Origin: Acidobacteriota bacterium
GTDB taxonomy: Bacteria > Acidobacteriota > Terriglobia > Bryobacterales > UBA6623
Length of the DNA stretch: 64,000 nt
Reading direction: 5' to 3'
Assembly (NCBI GenBank): GCA_016125275.1
Contig: WGMB01000004.1
Location: forward strand, 124,001 to 188,000
The position numbers were made by a program, and so were the translations under genes. Under the pieces are notes generated by a model. That model had not been told where the DNA came from. It ran no database searches and was given only the letters and a program-made list of their open reading frames with translations. Positions 4,504 through 52,741 of the stretch are shown piece by piece; position 1 is the first letter of the stretch; every line of letters starts with the position of its first letter.

Positions 4504-4870
4504 CGAAGATTTCCCCAGAAAACCAGTATACCCAGCCACTTGTGGTGCTGGCCCCGTAGTAACACGATCGAAATGAGACACCACTGAATCGTGGGTGTGC
4601 TATGCTTCGGGTGTGAGGCGACTCGCAAGGCTCTCCGCAGAGCTCGGCCCTCCTCTCGCCATGAGCGGCCGGCCGTTTCGTCCCCACCCATCCGCCGTTT
4701 TGCGGATGTCTTGATCCCCGCTCCAGTCATTGCGGGGAGTTTGTATCCCTGAATCAGTCCCGGTCTCTCTTCTCCGTGTTTGCCGCGCAGTTTGCGGCTC
4801 GACCGAAGTGTTTCTTCGAGACGATCGCCGGCAGCGAACCAAGCATTCCCAGAAGGAGGACAAACTACAC
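4504..4870. other. Intergenic leader with two tandem hairpins, possible structured RNA
   Basis: This 367-base space between divergent genes has no convincing gene. On the plus strand an extended -10-like TGCTATGCT lies at 4598-4606. Downstream are two perfect adjacent hairpins: CATCCGC/GCGGATG at 4689-4708 with a six-base loop, and TCCCCGC/GCGGGGA at 4715-4738 with a ten-base loop. A strong AAGGAGG ribosome site precedes the gene at 4871. If the promoter is real, the HAD gene has a leader of about 260 bases. I do not recognise a known riboswitch. Confidence 0.4.
4525..4530 (-). promoter_or_regulatory. -10-like box TATACT for di-heme peroxidase
   Basis: TATACT on the minus strand, 21 bases upstream of the ATG at 4503. 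It is the same hexamer used at 10063, 32559, 47926 and 60803, but here with room for a short leader. Confidence 0.4.
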
Positions 4871-5653
4871 ATGAACCACGGATTTCTGATCGACATGGAC
4901 GGCGTGATCTACCGCGGGACCGAAGCGATCCCCGGCGCCGCCGATTTCATCGAGCATCTCGACGAACAGGGCATCCCCTACCTGTTCCTGACCAACAACT
5001 CCGCCTACACGCAGCTCGACGTGGTGGTGAAGCTGCGTAAGTTCGGCATCGAAACGTCCACCGAGCACGTCTACACCGCCGCGCTGGCGACGGCTGAGTT
5101 CGTTTCGCAGCAGAAGCCGGACGGCGCGGCCTTCGTGATCGGCGAAGGCGGCCTGCTCAATGCGCTCAACCAGGTGAACTACGCCATCTCGAGCGAGCAC
5201 GCCGACTACGTGATCGTCGGAGAGGGCCGCACGATGAACTTCGAGGGCATGGAGAAGGCGCACCGGCTGATCGCCAACGGCGCCCACCTGATCTCGACCA
5301 ACGCCGACACCTGGTGCCCCACCGATTCGGGCCCGCGTCCGGGCTGCGGCGCCATCGTCGCCCTGCTCGAAGCCGCCACCGGCCGCAAGGCCTATCACGT
5401 CGGCAAGCCGAACCCCTTCATGATGCGGCTGGCGCGCAAGAAGATCGGCCTGCGTACCGACGAAGTCACCATGGTGGGCGACACCATGGACACCGACATC
5501 CGCGGCGCGACCGACCTGGGCTTCCACTCGGTGCTCGTGCTGACCGGCTCCACGCGCCGGCAGGACCTGGCGATGTACCCCTACGCTCCGACGCGGGTGG
5601 TGGATTCGATCGCCGACCTCGTGCCGAACCACCGCGGCCGCCGCGCCGCCTAG
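4871..5653 (+). CDS. HAD-IIA family phosphatase (NagD/phosphoglycolate-phosphatase-like)
   Basis: The protein has 260 residues. The open frame extends 141 bases upstream, but ATG 4871 follows an AAGGAGG ribosome site and gives the canonical N-terminus. All four HAD motifs are visible: DMDGVIYRG near the start (the catalytic Asp pair), TNNS (motif II), the lysine of GKPNPFMM (motif III) and VGDTMDTDI (motif IV). The C2-type cap between motifs II and III places it in subclass IIA, which hydrolyses small phosphomonoesters such as nucleotides, phosphoglycolate or pyridoxal phosphate. The exact substrate cannot be read from the sequence. Confidence 0.88.
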   Translation: MNHGFLIDMDGVIYRGTEAIPGAADFIEHLDEQGIPYLFLTNNSAYTQLDVVVKLRKFGIETSTEHVYTAALATAEFVSQQKPDGAAFVIGEGGLLNALNQVNYAISSEHADYVIVGEGRTMNFEGMEKAHRLIANGAHLISTNADTWCPTDSGPRPGCGAIVALLEAATGRKAYHVGKPNPFMMRLARKKIGLRTDEVTMVGDTMDTDIRGATDLGFHSVLVLTGSTRRQDLAMYPYAPTRVVDSIADLVPNHRGRRAA

Positions 5654-5670
5654 GTCCCTGAGAAAGCGGT

Positions 5671-5706
5671 GAGCCCGGAGGCGAAGCGTTCGCGTCCGGG
5701 CTCTTT
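5671..5706. terminator. Rho-independent terminator after HAD gene
   Basis: GAGCCCGGA at 5671-5679 pairs with TCCGGGCTC at 5695-5703, with a further inner stem GCGAA/TTCGC, followed by TTT. It starts 18 bases after the HAD stop. It also lies 27 bases beyond the stop of the convergent gene ending at 5730, so it may serve both directions. Confidence 0.8.
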
Positions 5707-5729
5707 CCGTTGCGAGAGACTGCCGGCGC

Positions 5730-8105
5730 CTAGTCCGGGACCGAGCAGCCGCCGCTGGTGCAGCGGACGACGCAGACGCGGGCGTCGAGCACGGTGACGG
5801 AGCCGTCTCCGTCGGCGTCGCGGGCGTCGCCGGGCAAGGCGGTCTGTCCGCGTCCGGCTACGATCGCCTGGATGTCGGCGGCGTCCACGGTTTCGTTGCC
5901 GTCGACGTCGCAGTTACGGGCGAACGCGCCGACGATCCCCAGCGCGGCGTCGTCGATGGCTCCGCAGACCAGACCGCCGTCCATCACGCTCGGCAGCGGG
6001 ACCCACTCCAGCACGGACTCGTTGTATTCCAGCCGCCGCAGCTCGGCGCTGGGCGCGCCTGACGGCGCCGGCACGCAGTAGTCGGCCAGCGTCGATTCGC
6101 CGCAGGAGTTGCGCCACTCGGCGGTGGAGATCCCCGCGAACAGGTTCGACGGAGCGTCAAAGCCGTTCGGGGTCTCCGGCGGCGCGGTCTGCATCGCCGC
6201 CGCAAGAGGATTCTCGTCGTAGGCGGCGGTCTGCAGGAAGTTGCCGATCTTGGGGGCGCGGGTGACGCCGGGGGCGCTGACGCTGCAGAAGCGGATCTCA
6301 GCGCCGTTGCCCAAGGAGACCTCGACGTCGGAGCCGGCCGGGGTGTTCGACGCCGGCTCCCGCAGGCGCACCAGCTCCCAGCCGCCTTCGGGCTTGTTGT
6401 CGAACAGGTCGGTGAGCAGGTTGGCCGGGTTGGCCATCGCCGCCATCATGTCGTCGCCCACGGCCAGCAGATTGCGCACGCCCCAGTTGGCCGCGTTGCC
6501 CAGCCCGGCGCGGGCTTCGGGCAGAAACGGCTCGTCGATGTGGGTGGTCGTCCAAAGGTCGCCGCCGCCGTCGTTGGGGATCGGGCCGATCAGCGAGCCG
6601 AGGCCGGCCTCGAGCGTCGGGACCACGGAGGGGTCGAGCCCGGGCGTGGCCTTGGCCAGCCGGGTGATGACGGAGATGTCCTGAAAGCTCAACGAGTAGT
6701 CGAACGTGCCCACGAGCAGCCGGCCCTTCCAGGCCTTGATGTCCCAAACGTACTGGTTGTAGGCGTTCCAGAAGCCCATCAGCCCGAACTTCGGATGGCG
6801 CTTGCCCGACGGCAGCAGGTTGGGCTGCAGCGTCCACTGGCCGAACCCTCCGCCGGCGGTGAAGACCGGGAACTCAGCGCTGCCGTAGAGCAGGTCGACT
6901 TCCTGCTGCGGCGAGGCGAGATTCCGGGCGCGGAACAGCGAGCTGCCGCGCTGCACGCCGAGCACGGTCGCTTCCACGTCCTGCTGCGTGCTCGGTGCGC
7001 CGTACTGTTCCAGGAACAGGGCCAGGCCGAGGTCGGGCAGGTGCATGGTCCCAAACACCAAGTAGCCGCCGAAGCTCGCCATGGCGCCGCCGGCGTAGGT
7101 GTGCGCCAGCACCGGGTCCGGCTCGTATTCGTCCATTGAGAAGACCTTCGTCCAGCCGCTCGCGTCGGCCGAGGTCAGCTTCAGCCCATTGAGCGGGCGG
7201 CTGACCTGGATCGAGGCGAAGGCGTCTTCGGTGGGCCAGGTGGAGACGGCGATGCGGTCCTCGTGCTCGATGATGTAGGCCGGGAAGCCGTCGATCTCGC
7301 CGACGAGCTCGTAGTCGAAGCAGTTCGTGCACGGCGAAGCGCCCAACTGCCCGGTCCAGCGGATGACGGCGCCCCCGTCGGTCGCCCCCATCGCCAAGTA
7401 CAGATCGCCGCCGATGACGGCGCCCTTGCGGACCGAGCGGAACTCGGGGAAGAGCTTCGTGCCCAGATACTCCAAGGTGTCGGCGCGGAAGGCGAACAGG
7501 CGGACCTCGCCGTTGAGGGTGGGGCCGCCGATGAGGATCAGCCCGCCGAAGGTGGCCGAGAAGCGCAGCCCCTCGGTCTCCTCGATGGCCGGGTCGAAGC
7601 CGAAGCGCGTGCCTTGGGCCTTGGGCGTGATGTCCTTCAGGCTCTGGTTCTGGGTGTCGTAGACGAGTATGTGCGGCGGCCGGTAGTCGCCGCGCTCGGC
7701 CGGCAGGCCGGTCCAGAAGACCCAGCCGCTGAGGCCGAACTCGCAGGCCCAAGCGCGGTACTTGGCCTCGTAGGGGATGGTTAGCCCGGACCGCGCCTGC
7801 CCCAAGCAGTGCGGGTTGGCGGCGGTGCCGATGATGACCTTCTTGCCGCTCTGGTCGAGCGTCGTGCTCCAGGGGTAGGACTGGTTTACCTTGGGTTGGC
7901 TGAAGAAGCACGGCGGGCCGGCGTTGGGAAAGTTCAGGCCCAACAGGCCGTAGCACTCGTCCGGCTGGGCTTTGGCGACGCGGGTTCCCTGTGAAGTTAG
8001 TAGGGACTCGTTGATGGGCTGCGCGGCGGCTCCGGCGATGCAGAGCAAGGCGAGAATCGCTGCGCGGATCAGCGTCCGCCAGGGCGAGAGGGGGTGGTAC
8101 GGCAT
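5730..8105 (-). CDS. Exported beta-propeller-like protein with C-terminal dockerin-like calcium repeats
   Basis: The protein has 791 residues from ATG 8103-8105, chosen because it gives a clean signal peptide (LIRAAILALLCIAGAAAQ); the open frame reaches 22 codons further upstream. The body has no motif I can name, but it looks like repeated propeller blades describing display-like beta strands. The last 60 residues (about 732-791) contain two calcium loops, DVDGNETVDAAD and DADGDGSVTVLDAR, resembling a type I dockerin or EF-hand pair. The tail ends in a cysteine-rich VCVVRC...GGC. Such tails anchor or stabilise secreted proteins. Function unknown. Confidence 0.65.
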   Translation of the reverse strand: MPYHPLSPWRTLIRAAILALLCIAGAAAQPINESLLTSQGTRVAKAQPDECYGLLGLNFPNAGPPCFFSQPKVNQSYPWSTTLDQSGKKVIIGTAANPHCLGQARSGLTIPYEAKYRAWACEFGLSGWVFWTGLPAERGDYRPPHILVYDTQNQSLKDITPKAQGTRFGFDPAIEETEGLRFSATFGGLILIGGPTLNGEVRLFAFRADTLEYLGTKLFPEFRSVRKGAVIGGDLYLAMGATDGGAVIRWTGQLGASPCTNCFDYELVGEIDGFPAYIIEHEDRIAVSTWPTEDAFASIQVSRPLNGLKLTSADASGWTKVFSMDEYEPDPVLAHTYAGGAMASFGGYLVFGTMHLPDLGLALFLEQYGAPSTQQDVEATVLGVQRGSSLFRARNLASPQQEVDLLYGSAEFPVFTAGGGFGQWTLQPNLLPSGKRHPKFGLMGFWNAYNQYVWDIKAWKGRLLVGTFDYSLSFQDISVITRLAKATPGLDPSVVPTLEAGLGSLIGPIPNDGGGDLWTTTHIDEPFLPEARAGLGNAANWGVRNLLAVGDDMMAAMANPANLLTDLFDNKPEGGWELVRLREPASNTPAGSDVEVSLGNGAEIRFCSVSAPGVTRAPKIGNFLQTAAYDENPLAAAMQTAPPETPNGFDAPSNLFAGISTAEWRNSCGESTLADYCVPAPSGAPSAELRRLEYNESVLEWVPLPSVMDGGLVCGAIDDAALGIVGAFARNCDVDGNETVDAADIQAIVAGRGQTALPGDARDADGDGSVTVLDARVCVVRCTSGGCSVPD

Positions 8106-8325
8106 GGAAATTGTGGTCCGAGGGCTCAATCGGTCCGACGCGTCTTCGCCGGGAGCCGTCGTGGGCGCCAACGATCGACCAGTCGCCCCAATTTACCCCA
8201 AAGACCGAATCGCTTCCCGCGATCTTTCGCCGACAATCTTTCGATCAGGCAAGTTCCCGCCCGCGCTAAGGTCTTGATCCGTCGAAGGATTTGCGAACGA
8301 GAACCTTAGGCGGCGCAATGACGCC

Positions 8326-10053
8326 TCAGAACGGCAACGCCAATTTGCCCTTGGCGCCGCGTCCCTTGAGGAACCCGAAATCACAGCCTTCATCGGCCTG
8401 TAACACGTTCTCCAGGAACAGGCGGCCGTAGCCGCGGTCGTAGTGCGGCTCCGGCGCCTGCCACTCCCGCAGGCGGCGGTTCATTTCGTGCTCGTCGATC
8501 AGCACGTCGAGGCGACGGTTTTCCGTATCGAGCCGGATGCGGTCGCCGTTGCGCACCGCCGCCAGCGGCCCGCCGACAGCGGCCTCGGGCGAGACGTGCA
8601 GCACGACTGCGCCGTAGCTGGTGCCGCTCATGCGCGCGTCGGAGATGCGCAGCATATCGCGCACGCCCTTCTCCAACACCTTCTTCGGCAGGGACATGTT
8701 GCCGACCTCGGGCATGCCGGGGCCGCCGATGGGACCGGCGTTGCGCAGCACCAGCACGCAGGTCTCGTCCACATCGAGGTCCGGGTCGTCGAGCCGGTTC
8801 ATCAGGTCCTCGTGGTTCTCGAAGACCACGGCCCGGCCTTCGTGCTGCAGCAGGTGACGCTCGGCGGCGCTGGTCTTGAGCACGGCGCCGTTGGGGCAGA
8901 GGTTGCCGTGCAGCACGATCGTGCCGCCGCCGGCCTGGATGGGGTTGTCGAGCGTGCGGATCACGTCGCGGTCGTGGACCTCTGCGTCGGCCACGTTCTC
9001 CGCGATGGACTTGCCGGTGCAGGTGAGCGCGTCGCCGTCCAGCAGCCCCAAGATCTCCTTCATCACCGCCGGCACGCCGCCGGCGTAGTAGACGTCTTCC
9101 ATCAGGTACTTGCCCGACGGCTTGACGTTGAGGATGACGGGCACTTGGCGCGAGATCTCGTCGAAGCGCGCGAGCGGCAGGTCCAGGCCGATGCGGTTGG
9201 CGATGGCCTTCAGGTGGATCACCGCGTTGGTCGAGCCGCCGATCGCCATGTCGACCCGGATGGCGTTGTCGACCGACCGGGCGTTGAGGATTTTTGAGAT
9301 CTTCAGGTCCTCGTGCACCATCTCGACGATGCGCTGGCCGGAGCGGTGGGCGATCTCGTAGCGCCGCGAGTCCGGGGCGGGGATGTTGGCGCAGCCGGTG
9401 AGCGTCAGCCCTAGGGCTTCGGCCAGAGAGGTCATCGTGGAGGCCGTCCCCATGGTCATGCAGTGGCCGGCCGAGCGCGACATGCAGGACTCGATGTCGC
9501 AGAACTCCCCTTCGCTCAAGCGGCCGGCGCGGCGCTCCTCGTCGAAGCGCCACACGTCGGTGCCGGAGCCGATCTCTTCGTTCTTCCAGCGGCCCTTGAG
9601 CATCGGTCCGCCGGGGACGACGATGCTGGGCAGATCCGCCGAGGCGGCGCCCATGATCTGCGCCGGGGTGGTCTTGTCGCAGCCGCACAGCAGCACCACG
9701 CCGTCGATCGGGTTGGCCCGGATCGACTCCTCCACGTCCATCGCCATGAGGTTACGGAACATCATGGTGGTGGGCCGCATGAACGGCTCGCCGAGCGAGA
9801 TGGTGGGGAACTCGAGCGGGAAGCCGCCGGCCGCCCACACGCCGCGCTTGACCGCTTCGGCCACCTGCCGCAGATGCGCGTTGCAGTTGGTGAGCTCGGA
9901 CCAGGAGTTGCAGATGCCGATGACCGGCCGGCCGTCGAAGACCTCGTGGGGAAAGCCCTCGGACTTCATCCAGGAGCGATGGATGAAGCCGAGCTTGTCC
10001 TTGCGTCCGAACCAATCCTGGGATCGGAGAACGGGCTTGTTGTCGTTGGCCAT
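8326..10053 (-). CDS. IlvD/Edd-family sugar-acid dehydratase (L-arabonate dehydratase-like)
   Basis: The protein has 575 residues from ATG 10051-10053, the family length. The three iron-sulfur cysteines are C57 (TNCNAHL), C125 (CGCDKTTPA) and C198 (GHCMTMGTAST), and the catalytic serine motif is MSGTSYG. The start (GFIHRSWMKSEGFPHEVFDG) is closer to sugar-acid dehydratases (L-arabonate, D-xylonate) than to the branched-chain amino acid enzyme. It would dehydrate an aldonate to its 2-keto-3-deoxy acid in the cytoplasm. A TATACT box ends nine bases before the ATG, inside the 46-base gap to the sulfatase gene, so it has its own promoter. Confidence 0.88.
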   Translation of the reverse strand: MANDNKPVLRSQDWFGRKDKLGFIHRSWMKSEGFPHEVFDGRPVIGICNSWSELTNCNAHLRQVAEAVKRGVWAAGGFPLEFPTISLGEPFMRPTTMMFRNLMAMDVEESIRANPIDGVVLLCGCDKTTPAQIMGAASADLPSIVVPGGPMLKGRWKNEEIGSGTDVWRFDEERRAGRLSEGEFCDIESCMSRSAGHCMTMGTASTMTSLAEALGLTLTGCANIPAPDSRRYEIAHRSGQRIVEMVHEDLKISKILNARSVDNAIRVDMAIGGSTNAVIHLKAIANRIGLDLPLARFDEISRQVPVILNVKPSGKYLMEDVYYAGGVPAVMKEILGLLDGDALTCTGKSIAENVADAEVHDRDVIRTLDNPIQAGGGTIVLHGNLCPNGAVLKTSAAERHLLQHEGRAVVFENHEDLMNRLDDPDLDVDETCVLVLRNAGPIGGPGMPEVGNMSLPKKVLEKGVRDMLRISDARMSGTSYGAVVLHVSPEAAVGGPLAAVRNGDRIRLDTENRRLDVLIDEHEMNRRLREWQAPEPHYDRGYGRLFLENVLQADEGCDFGFLKGRGAKGKLALPF

Positions 10054-10099: not shown

Positions 10100-11644
10100 T
10101 CAGCGCGGGTAGCCGTTGTGCTTGCGCTCCTGCACGAACTGCCGGGTCTGGTCGAAGATCTCCATCGAGCCGGTCGCCCGTGGGTCGCCGGTCTCGAGCT
10201 GATAGGCCCGCAGGGTCTCCTGCAGACGGGTCTTGATCTCGGCGTAGGCCGGATCGTCGGCCACGTTGTGCAACTGCCAGGGGTCCTTTTCGAGATCGAA
10301 GAGCTCCTCGGCCGCCGCGCCGCCGGCGTAGGCGGCGGCCAGGGGCGCAAGCTCCGGCCGCCCGGGGAAGCTCTGCAACAGCGTCTGGGTGTTGGCGGTC
10401 TCGGCCAGCTTGGCGTACTCGGAGTCGGGCCGCCGTAGGGCCGGATCGAGCTTCAAGGCGGGCGTGGAGCCGTAGCGCACGATGTACTCGTAGCGCTGGT
10501 CGCGGATCATGCGGCCCGACAGGTTCACCGGGTCGAACTCGCCGTGCCACTCGAGACCCGTGACGACCCAGTCGCGGGTGGGATCGACGAGGCCGGACTT
10601 GTCCGACTCGAGCGTCGCCACCAGACTACGCCCGGTCATCTCCGGCGGCACCGGCGCTCCTCCCGCGGCCAAGGCCGTGACGCCGAGGTCGCCGAAGGTC
10701 ACAAAATCCTCGATCGTCCGGCCCGCCGGGGCTCGCGACGGCCAGCGGATGGCCAGCGGCACGTGCACGCCCCAGTCGTACAAGGAAGCCTTGGAGCGCG
10801 GGAAGGACGTGCCGTTGTCGCCGGTGACGATCAGCAAGGTGTTGTCGAGTTGGCCGCGCTCCTCCAGCATCTTCAGCACCTTGCCGAGCTGTTCGTCGGC
10901 GTAGCAGACCTCGTAGAGCATGTTGGCGCGCTGGCGGCGGATGGCCGGCGTGTCGGGCAGAAAGCCGGGGACGCTCACCTGGTCGAGCGAGACGCCGTAG
11001 CGCTGCTGGAGCTTCTCGTAGTTGTCCTGGGCCCAGGGAGCGTGCGGCTCGGTGAGGCCGACCCAGAAGAAGAAGGGCTCCTCGGCGGGAGTCTGGTCGA
11101 GAAAGGCCTCGAAGTTGGCGGTGTAGTCGACGGCGCTGATGGCCTCCTGCGGGTCGCCCAAGCGGATGTCCTGGTAAGGCTTGCCCGCCGAATCGGGCCC
11201 GTGGCCGCCTTCGGGGTAGACGCCGGGCCCCCAGCCCTTGCCCGTGTGTCCGACGCGGTAGCCGGCCGCCGCCAGCAGGTCGGGGACGACGGGGAACTTC
11301 GTGGGCAGCCAGGCCTGGATGAAAGAGCCCTGCTCCAGCTCCCAGAAGTTGTGTCCCGTCAGCAACGAGGCTCGCGCCGGCGCGCAGGAGGGCGCCGAGG
11401 AGTAGGCGTGCGTGAACAGGGCGCCCTCGCGGGCGACGCGGTCGAAGTTCGGCGTGGGCAGGTGGGACCAGCCGTAGGCGCTGCGCTCGAGCCAGCTCTC
11501 GTCGTCGGTGATGAAGACGACGATGTTGGGCTTGCGGGCGGGCTCCGACCGCTCGGGCTCGGATGGAGCCTTGCCGCAGCCCGGCAACAAAACGAGGGCG
11601 AGCAGGGCGAGGGCGAGCAGGCGGGAGCGCGACGGAGATCTCAT
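10100..11644 (-). CDS. Type I sulfatase, exported lipoprotein
   Basis: The protein has 514 residues from ATG 11642-11644; the frame continues upstream, but this start yields a lipoprotein signal with the cysteine at residue 23 (LVLLPGCGK). The formylglycine motif is C87-A-P-A-R91 (SCAPARASLLTG), and the metal-binding TDDE lies near residue 46. It would hydrolyse sulfate esters, probably on sulfated polysaccharide, in the periplasm or at the surface. The gene lies just upstream of the sugar-acid dehydratase on the same strand. An anaerobic (anSME) or aerobic formylglycine-generating enzyme must be encoded elsewhere. Confidence 0.92.
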   Translation of the reverse strand: MRSPSRSRLLALALLALVLLPGCGKAPSEPERSEPARKPNIVVFITDDESWLERSAYGWSHLPTPNFDRVAREGALFTHAYSSAPSCAPARASLLTGHNFWELEQGSFIQAWLPTKFPVVPDLLAAAGYRVGHTGKGWGPGVYPEGGHGPDSAGKPYQDIRLGDPQEAISAVDYTANFEAFLDQTPAEEPFFFWVGLTEPHAPWAQDNYEKLQQRYGVSLDQVSVPGFLPDTPAIRRQRANMLYEVCYADEQLGKVLKMLEERGQLDNTLLIVTGDNGTSFPRSKASLYDWGVHVPLAIRWPSRAPAGRTIEDFVTFGDLGVTALAAGGAPVPPEMTGRSLVATLESDKSGLVDPTRDWVVTGLEWHGEFDPVNLSGRMIRDQRYEYIVRYGSTPALKLDPALRRPDSEYAKLAETANTQTLLQSFPGRPELAPLAAAYAGGAAAEELFDLEKDPWQLHNVADDPAYAEIKTRLQETLRAYQLETGDPRATGSMEIFDQTRQFVQERKHNGYPR

Positions 11645-27934: not shown

Positions 27935-29353
27935 CTACTTGGGGCGCACGTAGCTGGGCAGGACTTTCTGCTTGGCGTCCTTCCACAGGTCGGGATCGCC
28001 GCAGCCGAGGGAGTCGAACCAGCCGTGCAGCTTGGCGCTGAGGCGGGCGTGCTGGGTTTGCCGCGCCGGGTCGTCGAAGAGGTTGACGCGCTCGGCCGGG
28101 TCCGCCGCCAGGTGGTAGAGCTCGCTGGGGAAGCCTTCGGTGCGCTCGGTGAGCTTCCAGTCGGGCTCGCGGATGGTGCGGCAGTATTGGTACTCGGCGT
28201 AGACGGTGTCGTCCCAACTCTCGGCGGTTTCGCCGCGCAGCAGAGGGGCGTAGCTGCGGCCCGGGAGGGGCTTGGGAGAGTCCAGCGGCGGCAGGCCGAG
28301 GTAGTCGAGCACGGTGGGCGCGAAGTCGTAGAAGCTGGTGCAGGCCTGGACGCGGCCCGCGCCGGGGATGCGGCCGGGCTGGCGGAAGAAGGCCGGCACG
28401 CGCAGGGACTCGTCGAACATGTTGTAGGGCCAGGAGGTGTTGCCCTTGCCCCAGAGGCCGTGCTGCTCGAGCAGGAAGCCGTGGTCGGAGAGGTAGATGA
28501 ACAAAGTGTCGGCGGCGAGGCCGTGGTCGTCGAGGCGGGCGGCGATGCGGCCGACGTTGTCGTCGATGGCGCTGATCATGCCGTAGTAGTGCAGCTTGCT
28601 GTCGCGGTTGCCGACGTTGCGGCGCGAAAGGCTGTGGGCGATGGGCTCGTTGAGGGGCTCGCCGGGGAAGGTGGCGAAGGGCGAGTCGCGGTAGAGCGAG
28701 AGGTACTTGTCGGGCGTGCCCTCATAAGGCGTGTGGGGCGCGTTGTAGCTGACGAAGCAGAAGAAGGGGTGGTCCTTGGATTGGTCGATGAATTCGAGGG
28801 CCTTGTCGGTGATGACGTCGGTGGCGTAGCCCGGGTAGACCTGCTTTTCGCCCTGCCAATACATTTCGGGGTCTTGGTAGCGGGAGCCGCCGGTGGGCAT
28901 GGCGAACCAGTAGTCGAAGCCGGCTTGAGGCGTGGCGCTGTCGCCCATGTGCCACTTGCCGGAGAGGCCGCAGCGGTAGCCGTTGCGGGCCAGAGCTTCG
29001 GATAGAGTGGCCTCGCCGGCCAGGAACTGCTGCGCGGAGTCGCCTTCGTTGCCGTCGCTGATCCAGTCGTGGACGCCGTGCTGCGAAGGGATTTGGCCGG
29101 TCATCAGCGTCATGCGGCTGGGCGAGCAGACCGGAGTGGTGCAGAAGGCGTTGTCGAGCACGGCGCCTTCGCGGGCGAGCTGGTCGCTGTAGGGCGTCTT
29201 GATCTCGGGGTTGCCGTAGACGCCGAGGGTGGCGGGGGCCTGGTCGTCAGTGAGGACGAAGACGACGTTGGAGGGGCGCTGCGAGGGCGGGGAGCCGGCG
29301 CAGGCGGCCAGCGCGGCGGCGGAGGCGGATTGGAGGAACCGGCGGCGGTGCAC
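27935..29353 (-). CDS. Exported type I sulfatase
   Basis: The protein has 472 residues from GTG 29351-29353. Its N-terminus (MHRRRFLQSASAAALAACAG) can be read as a Tat signal with a lipobox cysteine. The formylglycine motif is C76-S-P-S-R80 (VCSPSRMTLMTG), and LTDDQ gives metal ligands. It is likely to desulfate polysaccharide outside the cytoplasm. A TAGAAT box ends six bases before the GTG and is divergent from the glycosyltransferase promoter. It is convergent with the GH-like gene, with its stop four bases away. Confidence 0.92.
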   Translation of the reverse strand: MHRRRFLQSASAAALAACAGSPPSQRPSNVVFVLTDDQAPATLGVYGNPEIKTPYSDQLAREGAVLDNAFCTTPVCSPSRMTLMTGQIPSQHGVHDWISDGNEGDSAQQFLAGEATLSEALARNGYRCGLSGKWHMGDSATPQAGFDYWFAMPTGGSRYQDPEMYWQGEKQVYPGYATDVITDKALEFIDQSKDHPFFCFVSYNAPHTPYEGTPDKYLSLYRDSPFATFPGEPLNEPIAHSLSRRNVGNRDSKLHYYGMISAIDDNVGRIAARLDDHGLAADTLFIYLSDHGFLLEQHGLWGKGNTSWPYNMFDESLRVPAFFRQPGRIPGAGRVQACTSFYDFAPTVLDYLGLPPLDSPKPLPGRSYAPLLRGETAESWDDTVYAEYQYCRTIREPDWKLTERTEGFPSELYHLAADPAERVNLFDDPARQTQHARLSAKLHGWFDSLGCGDPDLWKDAKQKVLPSYVRPK

Positions 29354-33832: not shown

Positions 33833-35830
33833 ATGCGAAACCTTCTCCTGCTGAGCCTCTCGTTCACGATCTGCGCCGCCGGCATGACGCCTCCGCCGAG
33901 CGTGGATCGGGAGGTCGCCGAGTGGACGATACGGCTGGGCGGAGCGGTGGTGACCGAAGGGGGGACGCGGCGGATTCAGAAGCTGACCGAGCTACCGGCT
34001 GGAGATTTTCGGCTGGAAGAGGTCAACCTGGTGGGCTGCAACATCGATCCGCCGGACTTGGCGCGGTTGAGCCCGCTGATCGCGCTCAAGAGGGTGCACC
34101 TGCCGGGGCCGATGTGGAATCCGCGAGCCGGGGCGAACATCGACCACAGCAAGCGGCTGGGCTTCCTGTCGTCGATCCCGAACCTGGAAGAGCTGACCTT
34201 CAGCTACACCTTCTTGGCGCGGATCAAGTTCAACGACCCGGGCTTGACGATGATTACGCCGCTGGCGGACTCGCTGCGGGCGCTGCGGATGCGGCGGACG
34301 TCGCTGAAGGGCGAGACGCTGGAGCCGTTCGTCAACCTGCGCGAGCTGGACTTGACGTTCTCGACCATCACCGACAAGGCGATGCCGGCGATCGGGCGGA
34401 TGCACGAGCTGGAGAAGCTGTGGCTGCGGGACAGCCGGGTGACCGATGACGGGCTGGAGGAGCTGGCCGGGCTGGTGAAGCTGGAAGAGCTGGACCTGAG
34501 CGGGCTGGCGCTGAGCGACCGCGGTCTGGAGCACCTGGCGGGGCTGAAGAAGCTGCAACGGCTGGAGATCCTGGGCGCGGACTTGACCGACGCCGGGCTG
34601 GAGACGTTGCGCGACAAGAAGGACCTGCAGGTGCTGAACCTGTATCGCACGAAGGTAACCAACGCCGGCCTGGACATTCTGAAGGAGCTGCCGAACCTGC
34701 GGATGCTGGACCTGCGCTACACGCGGGTGACGCAAGGCGGCGTGGAAGCCTTGCAGGCGGCGCTGCCGGACTGCCGCATCGAGTTCATCAACATGGCTCC
34801 GCTGCCGTCGGGCAGCCATGAGGTCACGATCCTCGAAAATCCCGCGCCGGCGGCGGTCGCCGCCTGGGCCGAGGGCGTGGGCGGTTCGGCGCGGATGGAA
34901 GGCGGCAAGCTGATCGAGCTGTCGCTGGCCGATACGGCCGTGACCGACGCCGAGATGGCGAACCTGGCGGGCTTGGCGGACCTGCGCCGCCTGAACCTGG
35001 GCACGACGCAGGTGGGCGACCTGGGCGTGGAGAAGCTGACCGGATTGGACAGCCTGGAAGACCTGGACTTGAAGCACACGACGGTCTCCGACGCGGGGCT
35101 GCCTGCGATCGGGCGGCTGCGCAGCCTGGTGAGCCTGGACTTGAGCCACACGCTGGTGGAAGGCTCGGGGCTCAAGGCGCTGCAGTCGCTGGGCAAGCTC
35201 GAGAAGCTGAGCCTGCTCAACGCGCACGTATATGACGACGGCATCGCGCAACTGGTGGATCTGCCGGCGCTGACGAGCCTGAACCTCTCCTACACGGACC
35301 TGACCGACAACGCCGGCGAGTCGCTGGGCAAGATGACCGGGCTGACCTCGCTGAACCTGACCGGCACGGAGCTGAAGGACCCGGGCCTGGAGAAGCTGGC
35401 CGGGCTGACCGGCCTGCGCTTTCTGGGTTTGAGCTACACCCGCATCACCGACGAAGGTTTTCAGGCGCTGGCCGGGATGAAGCAGCTCGAGACGCTGCAT
35501 CTGGTCCGCACGCGCACCGCCGACGAGGCCATGAAGACGATCGCCACGCTGCCCGCGCTCAAGGATCTGAACCTCGACTACACCGAGGTGACCGACGAGG
35601 GCCTGAAGCTGATGCCGGCGGATGCGCCGCTGGAGCGGCTGAGCCTGGACAGCGCCCACGTGAGCGACGCCGGGGTGGAGACGATCAAACAGCTCGACCG
35701 CCTGAAGGCGCTGGACCTGTATCACACGATGGTGACCGAGCAGGGCAAGCAGCAGCTCGACCAGGCTCTGCCCGCCTGCCAGATCACGTTCGACGCCGAT
35801 TCGAGCCGCCCGACCCGGAGAAGGAGCTAG
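33833..35830 (+). CDS. Exported leucine-rich-repeat protein with two duplicated halves
   Basis: The protein has 665 residues from ATG 33833, with signal peptide MRNLLLLSLSFTICAAG; GTG 33815 would add six residues. It contains two solenoids of 23-24-residue LRRs (L-x-x-L-x-L-x-x-T-x-V-T-D-x-G-L). Each half opens with a V-x-x-W...GG cap (residues about 26 and 341) and closes with an ALP-x-C-x-I-x-F motif (about 312 and 651). The halves meet near residue 337. TAGAGT boxes lie at 33804 and 33811. A surface or periplasmic binding role is likely. It is four bases upstream of the second LRR gene. Confidence 0.85.
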   Translation: MRNLLLLSLSFTICAAGMTPPPSVDREVAEWTIRLGGAVVTEGGTRRIQKLTELPAGDFRLEEVNLVGCNIDPPDLARLSPLIALKRVHLPGPMWNPRAGANIDHSKRLGFLSSIPNLEELTFSYTFLARIKFNDPGLTMITPLADSLRALRMRRTSLKGETLEPFVNLRELDLTFSTITDKAMPAIGRMHELEKLWLRDSRVTDDGLEELAGLVKLEELDLSGLALSDRGLEHLAGLKKLQRLEILGADLTDAGLETLRDKKDLQVLNLYRTKVTNAGLDILKELPNLRMLDLRYTRVTQGGVEALQAALPDCRIEFINMAPLPSGSHEVTILENPAPAAVAAWAEGVGGSARMEGGKLIELSLADTAVTDAEMANLAGLADLRRLNLGTTQVGDLGVEKLTGLDSLEDLDLKHTTVSDAGLPAIGRLRSLVSLDLSHTLVEGSGLKALQSLGKLEKLSLLNAHVYDDGIAQLVDLPALTSLNLSYTDLTDNAGESLGKMTGLTSLNLTGTELKDPGLEKLAGLTGLRFLGLSYTRITDEGFQALAGMKQLETLHLVRTRTADEAMKTIATLPALKDLNLDYTEVTDEGLKLMPADAPLERLSLDSAHVSDAGVETIKQLDRLKALDLYHTMVTEQGKQQLDQALPACQITFDADSSRPTRRRS

Positions 35831-35833
35831 CCG

Positions 35834-36940
35834 ATGCGCCCACTCGCCCTGCTGTTGACCGTGTTGACCGCCGCGACGGCTTGGCCGTTGTGCGCCGCCA
35901 CTTGGAGCGAGAACGACGTCGCGCGCTGGGTGCAGAGCGCCGGCGGCACGATCGAGCGCAACGACGCCGGCCAGATCGTCGGGGTGGACCTGTCCGAGAA
36001 GTGGATCAGCGACGACGACTTGGCGCTGCTGGGCCGGCTGGAGCACCTGGAGCGGATCAACCTGGCCTACACCTGGATCAGCGACCAGGGGCTGGAAGAG
36101 CTCAAGGACCTGCAGAACGTGCGGGAGCTGAGCCTGTACTACTGCGACTACATCACAGACGCGGCGGTGATTCCGCTGAAGGGCTGGAAGAAGCTGGAAG
36201 TACTGGACCTGGAGGGCGCCGACGTGACCAGCCGGGCCTTCGAGCACATCGCGCACCTGGAAAACCTGCGGGTGCTGAAGGTGGGCCACAGCCGGGTGGA
36301 GGACGAAGGCTTCGAGAACTTGGCGCCGCTGGAGAAGCTGGAAGAGATCAGCTTTGGCGGCAACAAGATGAGCGGACGGGCGCTGCCTCTGCTGAAGATG
36401 CTGCCGTCGCTGCGGAAGGTGGAGTTGGGCGGGCTGCAGCGGACCGATTCCGGGCTGTGGGGCGTGGCGCTGTCCGACTTCAACCTCGACAGCCTGGCGG
36501 AGCTGACGCAGCTCACGGACCTGGACCTGCACGACACGAAGATCGGCGACAAGGGCCTGGAACGGCTGCTGGGGCTGAAGAACCTGGAGCGGCTGGACCT
36601 GAGCGGGACGCTGGTGGGCGACCTCGGAATGCCCGTTCTGCCCAAGTTCACGCAGTTGCGCGAGCTGCGGCTGTGGCGCGCGGCGAAGGTGGGCGACCGG
36701 GCGATGGCGGCGATCGCCGCGCTGCCGGCGCTGGAAACGGTGGACCTGGCGGAGACGTCGATTAGCGAGGAAGGCCTGCAGGCGCTGCGGACGGCGCCTT
36801 CGCTGAAGCGGCTGTACGTGGGTGCAACGGCGGTGAGCAAGGCGGCCGCCGACGCTTTCGCCAAAGAGAAGCCGGGCGTGCAGGTCTCCTGGGCGCCGCT
36901 GCCGCCGAAGCCGGAACCGGAAGAGAAGGAAGAACGCTAA
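35834..36940 (+). CDS. Exported leucine-rich-repeat protein
   Basis: The protein has 368 residues with signal peptide RPLALLLTVLTAATAWPLC. The mature start repeats the V-x-x-W...GG cap (VARWVQSAGGTIERNDAGQI), then about ten LRRs such as LTDLDLHDTKIGDKGLERLL. The tail PPKPEPEEKEER is proline/acid rich. It begins three bases after the preceding LRR gene and is followed two bases later by the third gene, so all three should be cotranscribed and probably act together. The ligand is unknown. Confidence 0.83.
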   Translation: MRPLALLLTVLTAATAWPLCAATWSENDVARWVQSAGGTIERNDAGQIVGVDLSEKWISDDDLALLGRLEHLERINLAYTWISDQGLEELKDLQNVRELSLYYCDYITDAAVIPLKGWKKLEVLDLEGADVTSRAFEHIAHLENLRVLKVGHSRVEDEGFENLAPLEKLEEISFGGNKMSGRALPLLKMLPSLRKVELGGLQRTDSGLWGVALSDFNLDSLAELTQLTDLDLHDTKIGDKGLERLLGLKNLERLDLSGTLVGDLGMPVLPKFTQLRELRLWRAAKVGDRAMAAIAALPALETVDLAETSISEEGLQALRTAPSLKRLYVGATAVSKAAADAFAKEKPGVQVSWAPLPPKPEPEEKEER

Positions 36941-36942
36941 CG

Positions 36943-37443
36943 ATGGACCCCGCGTTGATGCGCAAGCTGGTGTTGGCCCTGGCCGTGGTGGGCGTGGCGG
37001 CGCTGGGCTACAACTGGTTTTCCAGCGGCCCGCAGCCGCGCCTAGAGGGCAAGATCACCGGCGTGCGGCTGCTGGAGGTGGAGCCGGAAGCCTCCATTCT
37101 GCTGGTGAACTTCGAGGTCGAGAACATCACGAACCTGCCGTTCGTGGCGCACGAGCGCTGGCTGGAGATCGTGGACGCCGAGGGCGACGCGCACCAGGGC
37201 ACGACGGTGAACGGCGTGGACATGAAGCCGCTGTTCCAGTATTTTGCCGCCGAGCTGGGGGGCATGAAGGACGAGCCCTTCATCGCGATGACGACGATCG
37301 ACCCGGGCGAGGTGGAGCGTGGGCTGCTGGCGGCCCGCTTCGAGATGTCGAAGGCGCAGCTCGAAGCGCGCAAAGAGATCATTTTGAGAATCGTCGATGG
37401 CGTCCGCCGCGAGACGCAGATCCGACAGCTTTCCCAGAACTAG
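36943..37443 (+). CDS. Single-pass membrane protein of the LRR operon, Ig-like domain
   Basis: The protein has 166 residues. One N-terminal transmembrane segment (LVLALAVVGVAALGYNWF) is followed by a soluble domain of alternating strands (GVRLLEVEPEASILLVNFEV, FVAHERWLEIVDAEGD) resembling an Ig-like or DUF4352-type fold. It starts two bases after the second LRR gene. Its last 65 bases overlap the convergent RNase D gene. The anchor and position suggest that it holds the LRR proteins at the membrane (inference). No known family recognised. Confidence 0.65.
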   Translation: MDPALMRKLVLALAVVGVAALGYNWFSSGPQPRLEGKITGVRLLEVEPEASILLVNFEVENITNLPFVAHERWLEIVDAEGDAHQGTTVNGVDMKPLFQYFAAELGGMKDEPFIAMTTIDPGEVERGLLAARFEMSKAQLEARKEIILRIVDGVRRETQIRQLSQN

Positions 37444-51226: not shown

Positions 51227-52741
51227 ATGCGCTTTGCCGTCACCGCCCTGCTGCTAGCTTTGGCCTCTTGCTCCGGTCCTGCCGAGCCGCCTGCCGCGAA
51301 ACCGCCCAATGTCGTTTACATTCAGAGCGATACGCACCGCTGGGGAGCGATGTCGTACACGCTCACGCCGCAGGCGGTGACGCCGAACATGCAGGCGATG
51401 GCGGGACAGGGCGTCTCGCTCGACCGCTACTACGTGAACCTGCCGATCTGTACGCCGTACCGGGCGATCATGATGTCCGGCCGTTGGCCCTGGCAGCAGG
51501 GGCTGATGGCCAACCACATGAGCCTGGGCGAGCGCGTGGACCTGCCCGAGGGCCAAAAGACCCGTGGGACGATCGCCTGGGCGTTCAAGGACGCCGGCTA
51601 CACGACCGGCCATTTCGGCAAGTGGCACCTGGGCGGCAAGGACGCCCGGCCGTTCGGCTTCGACCGGTCCGTCGTCTGGAACGGCACGAACAACCACCGC
51701 AAGAACACCTTCAACGTGGACGGCGGCGACAACGAGAAGTGGCAGGGCGAATCCAACGCGACCGCCACCACCGAGCAGGCCCTGGACTGGATCGCCGAGA
51801 AGGCCCAGGGAGAGCAGCCGTTCTTCGCGGTGATCTCGCTGAACCCGCCGCACGGGCCGTTCGACGACGCCCCGGAGGCCAAGAAGGCCCTCTATCCCGA
51901 CGAGAAGACGCTGCCGTTCCACCCGCTGGACCAGATTCACGACTTCGAGCAGCACCGCGACTACCACGCCTTGATCAGCGGCATCGACGACGATTTGGGG
52001 CTGGTGATGCGGCGGCTGGATGAGCTGGGGTTGGCCGAGGACACGATTCTCGTCTATACCTCCGATCACGGCGCGATGACGGGCATCGACGGCGTCTCCT
52101 ACGGGCAGAAGCGGCATCCGAACGATGAGTCCAGCCGCGTGCCGTTTCTGATTCGCTGGCCGGGTTCCATCGTGGCCGGTCTGCGACTTGAGATTCTGGC
52201 GTCGACGATCGACGTGTTTCCGACTCTGGCGGGACTGTGCGGGTTGGCGCCGAAGCTGGAGGGCAAGCCGTCGGGCGAGTACTTGGTGTCGCTGCCGGGG
52301 CAGGATCTCTCGCCATGGCTGCTAGAAGGGTCTGACGCGTTTCCTCAGCCTACCCAGGAGGTTTACTTGGCGCACCCGTCGAACATGAACAACAACGGCA
52401 GCCGGCACGAAATCGTCTGGAGGGCGATCGTCACGCCGGAGTACACCTATGCCGTGACGGACCAGGGCGAGCACCGGCTGTGGGCCAACGGGGACGGCTA
52501 CCAGGAGAAGAATCTGATCGACGACCCGCAGTATCTTGAGACGCGGCGCAAGCTGTGGGCGCAGCTCGACAAGCTGCTCGACAAGACCGAGCGGCCGTTC
52601 TATGACCAGTGGTTCGCCAACGCCGCCGAGGGCGAGTTGAAGGCTTGGAACCGCGAGCACGGGTTGGGCGAGGGGAACACGGACCGGGCGGCGGGGAAGG
52701 CGTTTTTGTTTGACATGGGGAAGTCGAAGCCTGGGGAGTAG
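51227..52741 (+). CDS. Exported lipoprotein sulfatase
   Basis: The protein has 504 residues from ATG 51227; the frame is open to 51080, but this start gives a lipoprotein signal (ALLLALASCSG, cysteine at residue 15). The formylglycine motif is C75-T-P-Y-R79 (PICTPYRAIMMSGRWP), and SDTHRWGA gives metal ligands. It belongs to the S1 sulfatases. It would act in the periplasm or at the surface on sulfated glycans. The stop is five bases from the convergent frameshifted gene. Confidence 0.92.
   Translation: MRFAVTALLLALASCSGPAEPPAAKPPNVVYIQSDTHRWGAMSYTLTPQAVTPNMQAMAGQGVSLDRYYVNLPICTPYRAIMMSGRWPWQQGLMANHMSLGERVDLPEGQKTRGTIAWAFKDAGYTTGHFGKWHLGGKDARPFGFDRSVVWNGTNNHRKNTFNVDGGDNEKWQGESNATATTEQALDWIAEKAQGEQPFFAVISLNPPHGPFDDAPEAKKALYPDEKTLPFHPLDQIHDFEQHRDYHALISGIDDDLGLVMRRLDELGLAEDTILVYTSDHGAMTGIDGVSYGQKRHPNDESSRVPFLIRWPGSIVAGLRLEILASTIDVFPTLAGLCGLAPKLEGKPSGEYLVSLPGQDLSPWLLEGSDAFPQPTQEVYLAHPSNMNNNGSRHEIVWRAIVTPEYTYAVTDQGEHRLWANGDGYQEKNLIDDPQYLETRRKLWAQLDKLLDKTERPFYDQWFANAAEGELKAWNREHGLGEGNTDRAAGKAFLFDMGKSKPGE

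What the first reader, a model, noticed from the sequence alone, without database searches (positions are those of the whole stretch)
33833..37443. Three-gene leucine-rich-repeat operon with a shared W...GG cap
The first protein is an internal duplication: each half opens with a V-x-x-W...GG cap and closes with ALP-x-C-x-I-x-F. The second LRR protein has the same cap once, and a single-pass membrane protein ends the operon. This could be a surface recognition or adhesion system with matched modules.
Basis: partly seen in the sequence, partly recalled or inferred. Interest (0 to 1): 0.5.

Follow-up and report, generated by a model that had tools for sequence, protein, structure and literature searches.

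The report
Paired LRR proteins tied to cytochrome
Two neighbouring, probably secreted leucine-rich-repeat proteins form a matched pair that, across one order of soil and water bacteria, comes and goes in nearly equal copy number with one particular exported protein of unknown function, usually with its di-haem cytochrome partner, which gives a first handle on a long-mysterious gene pair; the third gene of the supposed operon is not part of it.

Summary
P1 (33833-35830) is two LRR modules in tandem, each with a helix-GG-strand N-cap; P2 (35834-36940) carries the cap once. A cap profile finds only the 3 P1 and 3 P2 genes in this 7.55 Mb genome. P1-P2 is a conserved pair: P2 lies directly downstream in 94 of 103 distinct P1 loci, and both are one open frame in another.

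The third gene does not belong. P3 is a single-copy membrane protein in 35 of 41 genomes, with or without the LRRs, and lies beside P1-P2 only here (1 of 103 loci).

The real partners lie outside the finding: a divergent subfamily of DUF1552 (Tat-type leader) and a DUF1592/PSCyt3 di-haem cytochrome. In 200 genomes of the order, P1 occurs in 87 and this DUF1552 in 83, never without P1; copy number is equal in 72 of 83. Their trees mirror each other (r 0.94). The window's own counterpart is probably at C10:592848-596098.

Most likely: a secreted LRR heteromer that serves as binding or scaffold part of an extracytoplasmic redox system. The association is strong; complex, chemistry and substrate are inferred. 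My searches found no report of the link.

The parts
33833..35830 (+). P1: double-module LRR protein, 665 aa (hydrophobic leader, two capped LRR solenoids, conserved basic C-terminal tail)
33902..33955 (+). P1 first N-cap (helix 24-34, GG 36-37, strand 38-41)
34760..34786 (+). ALPDCRIEF closing strand of first module (residues 310-318)
34847..34924 (+). P1 second N-cap (helix 339-348, GG 350-351, strands 352-364)
35765..35791 (+). ALPACQITF closing strand of second module (residues 645-653)
35801..35821 (+). P1 C-terminal tail S657..P660.R662R663; S657, R662 and R663 in 40 of 40 aligned sequences, S...RR at the extreme C-terminus in 79 of 80 P1 frames of the named loci
35834..36940 (+). P2: single-module LRR protein, 368 aa, conserved neighbour of P1
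35909..35947 (+). P2 N-cap (ENDVARWVQSAGG, residues 26-38)
36943..37443 (+). P3: single-pass membrane protein with a beta-sandwich domain; in operon position here but NOT part of the conserved system

Best explanation
P1 and P2 are the two LRR subunits of a dedicated four-component extracytoplasmic system. The other two parts are a divergent DUF1552 protein with a Tat-type leader and a di-haem c-type cytochrome of the DUF1587/1595/1592/1588/1585 (PSD/PSCyt3) family. P1 and P2 are secreted and act together, probably as a heteromer; their capped LRR arcs bind either the substrate or the partner proteins and hold the DUF1552-cytochrome pair in place, while the cytochrome moves electrons to or from whatever the DUF1552 protein acts on. 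The strictly kept basic tail of P1 is the best candidate for a docking site. SHOWN here: adjacency of P1 and P2, one fusion, phyletic and copy-number matching with the DUF1552 subfamily, mirrored trees, leader, haem and Tat-type sequence motifs. INFERRED: secretion itself, the physical complex, redox chemistry, role of the tail, substrate (a polymer such as a polysaccharide is a guess from family context). In this genome the set is split: the window holds P1-P2, and the DUF1552-cytochrome pair at C10:592848-596098 is its likely counterpart.
For: (1) P2 directly downstream of P1 in 94 of 103 distinct P1 loci; a P2-P1 fusion frame of 944 aa in L248. (2) Subfamily DUF1552 and/or cytochrome gene in 68 of 103 loci, and in 51 of the 66 with at least 5 kb on both sides; families by Pfam. 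(3) This genome and 40 relatives: 21 have both P1 and the subfamily, 20 neither, equal copy number in all 41 (hand counts, tallied); r of P1 with the other DUF1552 genes is 0.33. (4) 200 genomes of the order (the 41 included): P1 in 87, subfamily in 83, subfamily without P1 in 0, copy number equal in 72 of 83. (5) Mirrored trees: P1-P2 r 0.92 (29 linked pairs), P1-DUF1552 0.94 (27), P1-cytochrome 0.96 (24); 0, 0 and 1 of 2000 within-genome shuffles reach these. (6) G000, G005, G007, G009 and G024 keep equal numbers of P1 and subfamily genes although some copies are unlinked; in G000, G024 and for one P1 of G009 the unlinked copies lie well inside contigs, in G005 and G007 some gaps may be contig breaks. 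(7) The one other P1 genome in a 396-genome phylum sample has the full four-gene set. (8) Two CXXCH in 62 of 63 distinct cytochromes, Tat-like RR in 65 of 72 distinct DUF1552 proteins. (9) Of 30 fetched DUF1552 loci of two genomes (42 matches), 3 score 775-799 bits with the subfamily profile and 27 at most 240.
Against: The window copy has no DUF1552 or DUF1592 gene within its 64 kb. 4 of 87 P1 genomes lack a detected subfamily gene (one, G494, is listed as 97% complete), and 11 of 83 differ by one copy. The cytochrome matches less well (34 genes against 40 P1 in 41 genomes). Pairing of the window with C10 rather than C14 rests on tree position with modest support (SH-aLRT 77 in P1; 91 for the DUF1552 clade, 34 inside it; 63 in P2) and a small r difference (0.928 against 0.923). 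Relatedness of the genomes inflates all correlations and was not corrected for. In six P3 loci of one genus a DUF1592-cluster gene also lies nearby (one, in L128, confirmed by Pfam), so mere proximity to such genes is not rare. No binding, localisation or enzyme data were found for any of the four proteins.
Confidence: 0.62

Rival explanations
1. Surface adhesion or recognition system: P1 and P2 are displayed internalin-like binders, with P3 as a membrane partner.
For: LRR folds close to internalins and other binding LRRs (InlF 4fmz: Z 28.7, rmsd 3.7, 289 aligned, second module only); hydrophobic leaders; the three genes are tightly packed here.
Against: P3 lies with the pair only in this genome among 103 loci and is present in 15 of 20 P1-less genomes. 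No anchor domain was found by Pfam. Matching to a DUF1552/cytochrome pair is not explained by adhesion alone.
Confidence: 0.15
2. The four genes are one mobile or hitch-hiking island whose co-occurrence reflects co-transfer and not joint function.
For: Copies vary from 1 to 6 per genome and lie in different surroundings; a mirrored gene trio that looks like an insertion sits beside one copy (L093).
Against: Sets split across contigs still keep equal numbers and similar tree positions, in G000 and G024 well inside contigs; four relative orientations occur (36/14/9/6); fusion of P2 and P1.
Confidence: 0.1
3. P1/P2 are LRR inhibitors or chaperones that keep the DUF1552-cytochrome pair inactive until the right place, like ribonuclease inhibitor with RNase.
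For: The second module of P1 resembles ribonuclease inhibitor (2bex: Z 29.1, rmsd 3.3, 321 aligned), although FBXL2 (6o60: Z 32.0, rmsd 2.5, 308 aligned) is nearer; one-to-one gene copies in 41 genomes.
Against: Fold similarity among LRRs says little about function; nothing seen here indicates that the pair is harmful when free.
Confidence: 0.13

Closest known systems
PSCyt3/PSD gene next to a conserved unknown gene, as described for planctomycetes and freshwater Verrucomicrobia (He et al. 2017, PMC5615132; passages read)
   Same: The partner genes have these domains: DUF1587/1595/1592/1588/1585 (PSD/PSCyt3) beside DUF1552. The paper says PSCyt2 and PSCyt3 genes usually lie next to each of two families of unknown genes and that nothing is known of their functions. 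That the PSCyt3 neighbour there is DUF1552 is my assumption: the main text does not name it.
   Different: Here a dedicated LRR pair is attached to one DUF1552 subfamily; 'leucine-rich' does not occur in that paper's main text. The window copy itself is unlinked.
Internalins and other bacterial LRR proteins
   Same: LRR solenoid with its own N-cap and a leader; structural matches to InlA and InlF.
   Different: 24-residue repeats with best matches to FBXL2 and ribonuclease inhibitor, helix-GG-strand cap, double module, no anchor domain in Pfam, conserved basic tail, a second LRR protein as regular neighbour.
Cbp2D/Cbp2E redox pair of Cellvibrio japonicus (PMC12542752; passages read)
   Same: A c-type cytochrome-bearing protein working with a second binding protein, for which the authors hypothesise a heterodimer in cellulose attack.
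   Different: Different domains (CBM2, X158, X183); no homology was tested here. An analogy only.

Membership tests
LRR proteins | Tandem LRR units forming a solenoid | tested here: met
   Pfam LRR_4/LRR_6/LRR_8 above cut-off in P1 and P2; P1 model with 24-residue strand spacing, pLDDT 91; P2 was not modelled
Internalin family | LRR solenoid of internalin type | tested here: inconclusive
   InlF Z 28.7 (rmsd 3.7, 289 aligned), but FBXL2 Z 32.0 and ribonuclease inhibitor 29.1 are as near or nearer
Internalin family | Cell-wall anchor (LPXTG, GW or WxL) or post-LRR Ig-like domain (features recalled) | tested here: not met
   Only LRR models above cut-off in P1 and P2; P1 ends in a short basic tail after its last repeat
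PSCyt3-DUF1552 gene pair | DUF1552 gene beside a DUF1592/1588 cytochrome gene | tested here: met
   Met at partner loci; absent in the window, whose likely counterpart is C10:592848-596098
DUF1552 (HXXSHH), LRR-linked subfamily | H-x-x-[ST]-H-H motif from which the Pfam name comes | tested here: not met
   HH[DEG]Y[ST]H present in 72 of 72 distinct proteins, but the last His only in 2 of 72; the one member scanned still passes the Pfam cut-off, 242 against 30 bits
Three-gene LRR operon with P3 | P3 co-occurs with the LRR pair in other genomes | tested here: not met
   1 of 103 distinct loci, the window; P3 in 15 of 20 P1-less genomes
Alkaline phosphatase/sulfatase superfamily (for the DUF1552 partner) | Profile similarity to DUF1501 and sulfatases | tested here: inconclusive
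   Other DUF1552 to DUF1501 probability 97.7, DUF1501 to sulfatase 93.5 over 99 columns, but the LRR-linked subfamily to DUF1501 only 13.9 and to sulfatase 9.2; profile names checked by Pfam on members

The most novel reading that the evidence does not exclude
P1, P2, the variant DUF1552 protein and the di-haem cytochrome form one stoichiometric secreted redox machine, in which a double-plus-single LRR scaffold holds a cytochrome-coupled enzyme and the nearly invariant P1 tail (S..P.RR) docks or sorts it. Each genome that has the system runs one to six parallel cognate sets, even when the genes are scattered.
Probability: 0.38. Interest if true: 0.75.

Novelty: new variant of a known kind. Interest (0 to 1): 0.56.

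Why it matters
DUF1552 and PSCyt/PSD genes are multiplied in these bacteria without a known function (up to 25 DUF1552 matches per genome among the 41 searched). A dedicated partner with matched copy number and mirrored evolution turns that open question into a concrete biochemical one: co-purify the cognate set and ask what it binds and oxidises or reduces.

Tried and rejected
P3 as an operon partner: rejected. P3's fold search gives middling beta-sandwich matches (best Z 9.4, rmsd 2.7, 102 aligned, in a GH2 beta-glucuronidase) and names no function; its best sequence match among solved structures is chance-like (E 0.52). Solved relatives of the cytochrome and of the DUF1552 protein by sequence: none at E<=0.1. 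The genome-contig scan with P3 found no relative, although genome search did. Adhesion was not testable here. Whether sulfatase genes are enriched near the cassette was not tested.

Literature: searches gave no paper linking LRR proteins to DUF1552/DUF1592/PSCyt. These are listings (15 of 47 papers shown, 12 of 312) of an open-access library. Passages were read in PMC5615132, PMC2754498, PMC6004670, PMC7789669, PMC11495043 and PMC12542752; in PMC10916295 the terms did not occur. No whole paper was read.

Counting choices: copy numbers were typed by hand. Partial LRR matches to P1 under 250 bits (among them the only ones in G003, G030, G031, G037) were not counted as P1. G018's P1 appears as two pieces and was counted as one. 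Eight cytochrome matches at 206-214 bits (35-36% identity) were dropped. The list was cut by the tool; G007 has 3 P2 against 4 P1. At most 6 P1, 8 DUF1552 and, in the phylum sample, 3 P1 candidates were scored per genome. The first DUF1552 tree labelled L169 as not LRR-linked although by score it belongs to the subfamily. In one search, 18 duplicate loci were dropped before counting 103. Trees are quick IQ-TREE runs; no correction for relatedness was made.
Full report
WHAT IS IN THE WINDOW. Three same-strand genes lie at 33833-35830 (P1, 665 aa), 35834-36940 (P2, 368 aa) and 36943-37443 (P3, 166 aa), 3 and 2 bases apart. P1 and P2 begin with hydrophobic leaders. Above their cut-offs Pfam finds only LRR models in P1 and P2, and nothing in P3. 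P3 runs tail to tail into a 3'-5' exonuclease/HRDC gene.

THE CAP AND THE DUPLICATION. P1 has V28..W31...GG and V342..W345...GG, P2 has V29..W32...GG. The P1 model (mean pLDDT 91.1, pTM 0.82; 24 aligned sequences) shows two LRR solenoids with 24-residue spacing, each opened by a helix, a GG turn and a strand. The P1 halves match each other (hhalign probability 100; BLASTP 29% over 279 residues) and both match P2. A profile of 15 caps finds six places in the 7.55 Mb genome at E<=0.1, one in each of three P1 and three P2 genes, and 115 P1 and 110 P2 ORFs, no others, among 7677 ORFs of fetched loci, some of them held twice. The profile was made from these families, which favours them, and it misses the first, more divergent cap of P1. 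Across 40 P1 sequences W345 is kept in 97% and G350/G351 in 95%; W31 is kept in 20 of the 20 aligned sequences that reach it. The extreme C-terminus is kept as well as anything: S657, R662 and R663 in 40 of 40, and an S...RR end in 79 of 80 P1 frames of the named loci, the one exception still having RR.

P1-P2 IS A UNIT. Relatives carry full-length P1 at 38-50% identity with P2 beside it in most cases. A scan of named genomes kept 80 loci out of 108 relatives; by record title they are Bryobacterales or other acidobacterial bins except one titled Acidimicrobiia. P2 is present in 75 of these 80. Over all loci, duplicates removed, P2 lies directly downstream of P1 in 94 of 103. Of the nine others, L248 has both in one 944-aa frame in the order P2-P1, with the P1 tail still at the end, and L101 has a sulfatase gene between them.

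P3 IS NOT. P3 has one match per genome in 35 of 41 genomes: 20 of 21 with P1 and 15 of 20 without (Fisher p 0.09). In 11 of the 19 other P3 loci fetched it sits beside a member of one gene cluster, NifU-like by Pfam on one member. It is beside the LRR pair in 1 of 103 loci, the window, and none of the 19 other P3 loci shows an LRR gene of this family within five genes. Six of those 19, all of one genus, do hold a DUF1592-cluster gene; the one checked has the same Pfam domains as the cytochrome described below, and a match in that genome near P3 is only about 35% identical to the LRR-linked type. The P3 model is a membrane helix and a beta-sandwich.

THE REAL PARTNERS. The genes most often next to the pair are a roughly 440-aa DUF1552 (HXXSHH) gene and a roughly 650-aa DUF1587/1595/1592/1588/1585 gene. 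At least one is found in 68 of 103 loci, and in 51 of the 66 with 5 kb or more on both sides; the DUF1552 gene, where present, lies downstream convergent in 36, upstream on the same strand in 14, upstream divergent in 9 and downstream on the same strand in 6. The cytochrome has two CXXCH motifs in 62 of 63 distinct sequences and the DUF1552 protein a Tat-like RR motif in 65 of 72. The LRR-linked DUF1552 is a separate subfamily: of 30 fetched DUF1552 loci of two genomes (42 matches), 3 score 775-799 bits with its profile and 27 at most 240. It carries HH[DEG]Y[ST]H in 72 of 72 distinct proteins and has the last histidine of HXXSHH in only 2 of 72.

CO-OCCURRENCE. In 41 genomes (this one and 40 relatives), 21 have P1 and the subfamily, 20 neither, with identical copy number in every genome (40 and 40 genes, hand-counted). 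Other DUF1552 genes correlate with P1 at only r 0.33, and G019 has 20 DUF1552 matches without P1. The cytochrome is close (34 genes, r 0.95). Across 200 genomes of the order, the 41 included: P1 in 87, subfamily in 83, subfamily alone in 0, P1 alone in 4, equal copy number in 72 of 83, r 0.98. In a sample of 396 genomes of the phylum, drawn evenly and so not centred on this order, only this genome and G227 reach E<=1e-130 with P1, and one of G227's two P1 contigs holds the full four-gene set.

CO-EVOLUTION. Distances in the P1 and P2 trees correlate at 0.92 (29 linked pairs), P1 and DUF1552 at 0.94 (27), P1 and cytochrome at 0.96 (24); reassigning copies within genomes reached these values in 0, 0 and 1 of 2000 shuffles. 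In several genomes the set is scattered. Here P1 occurs at the window, C13 and C18; P2 at the window, C14 and C18; the DUF1552 subfamily at C10, C14 and C18; the cytochrome at C10 and C18. The window's P1 and P2 and the C10 DUF1552 occupy the same place in their trees, next to the G005/G007/G009 sets, so C10:592848-596098 is the likely counterpart. Support is modest (r 0.928 against 0.923 for the swap).

MECHANISM. Shown: leaders, folds, motifs, genetic coupling. Inferred: a secreted P1-P2 heteromer acts as binding or scaffold part of an extracytoplasmic redox system with the DUF1552 and cytochrome proteins. The other DUF1552 proteins resemble DUF1501 (probability 97.7) and DUF1501 resembles sulfatases (93.5 over 99 columns), though the LRR-linked subfamily alone does not (13.9 and 9.2); a hydrolase-like fold is therefore a lead only. 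For PSCyt genes in general, He et al. 2017 (PMC5615132, passages read) report PSCyt2 and PSCyt3 genes next to unknown families, sulfatase genes often nearby in some bins, carbohydrate-binding modules in some, and unknown function; they predict periplasmic or cytoplasmic location. A DUF1592 protein with CBM2 is listed from a lignocellulose-degrading community (PMC6004670, one table passage read). That is why a polymer substrate is my guess.

NOVELTY. The listings showed no paper that joins LRR proteins to these families; the library is open-access and some listings were partial. The partner families and their pairing are known or close to known; a dedicated LRR pair with matched copy number appears to be new.

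Noticed in passing
window 36943-37443: P3 belongs to a membrane protein family with one match in each of 35 of 41 genomes, beside a NifU-like cluster in 11 of 19 other loci fetched; no Pfam match at E<=1.
   Followed up: partly
L247 (record JANXLY010000229.1), frame 4748-8671: P1 is in one open 1308-aa frame with an upstream amidohydrolase-family protein (Amidohydro_3 by Pfam); a real fusion or a missing stop.
   Followed up: partly
L101 (G009:C139), L253 (G005:C180), L259 (G007:C210): A sulfatase gene (Pfam PF00884) lies between P1 and P2 (L101) or beside P2 (L253, L259) in one type of the cassette.
   Followed up: partly
window 10100-11644, 27935-29353, 51227-52741: Three sulfatase genes (Pfam PF00884) lie in the same 64 kb window, a neighbourhood reported for PSCyt genes in some Verrucomicrobia bins.
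   Followed up: partly
L093 1173-6420 (G007:C118): A trio of genes occurs twice in mirror image between P2 and its DUF1552 gene, looking like an insertion.
   Followed up: no
L123, L125, L126, L128, L129, L131 (P3 loci of one genus): A DUF1592-cluster gene lies within the fetched stretch around P3 in six of 19 loci (L128 confirmed by Pfam).
   Followed up: partly
LRR-linked DUF1552 subfamily, e.g. L082 12025-13365: The HXXSHH motif reads HH[DEG]Y[ST]H with the final His in only 2 of 72 distinct proteins, and a His (H379) stands where 82% of 28 other rows (one of them a subfamily member) have Ser.
   Followed up: partly
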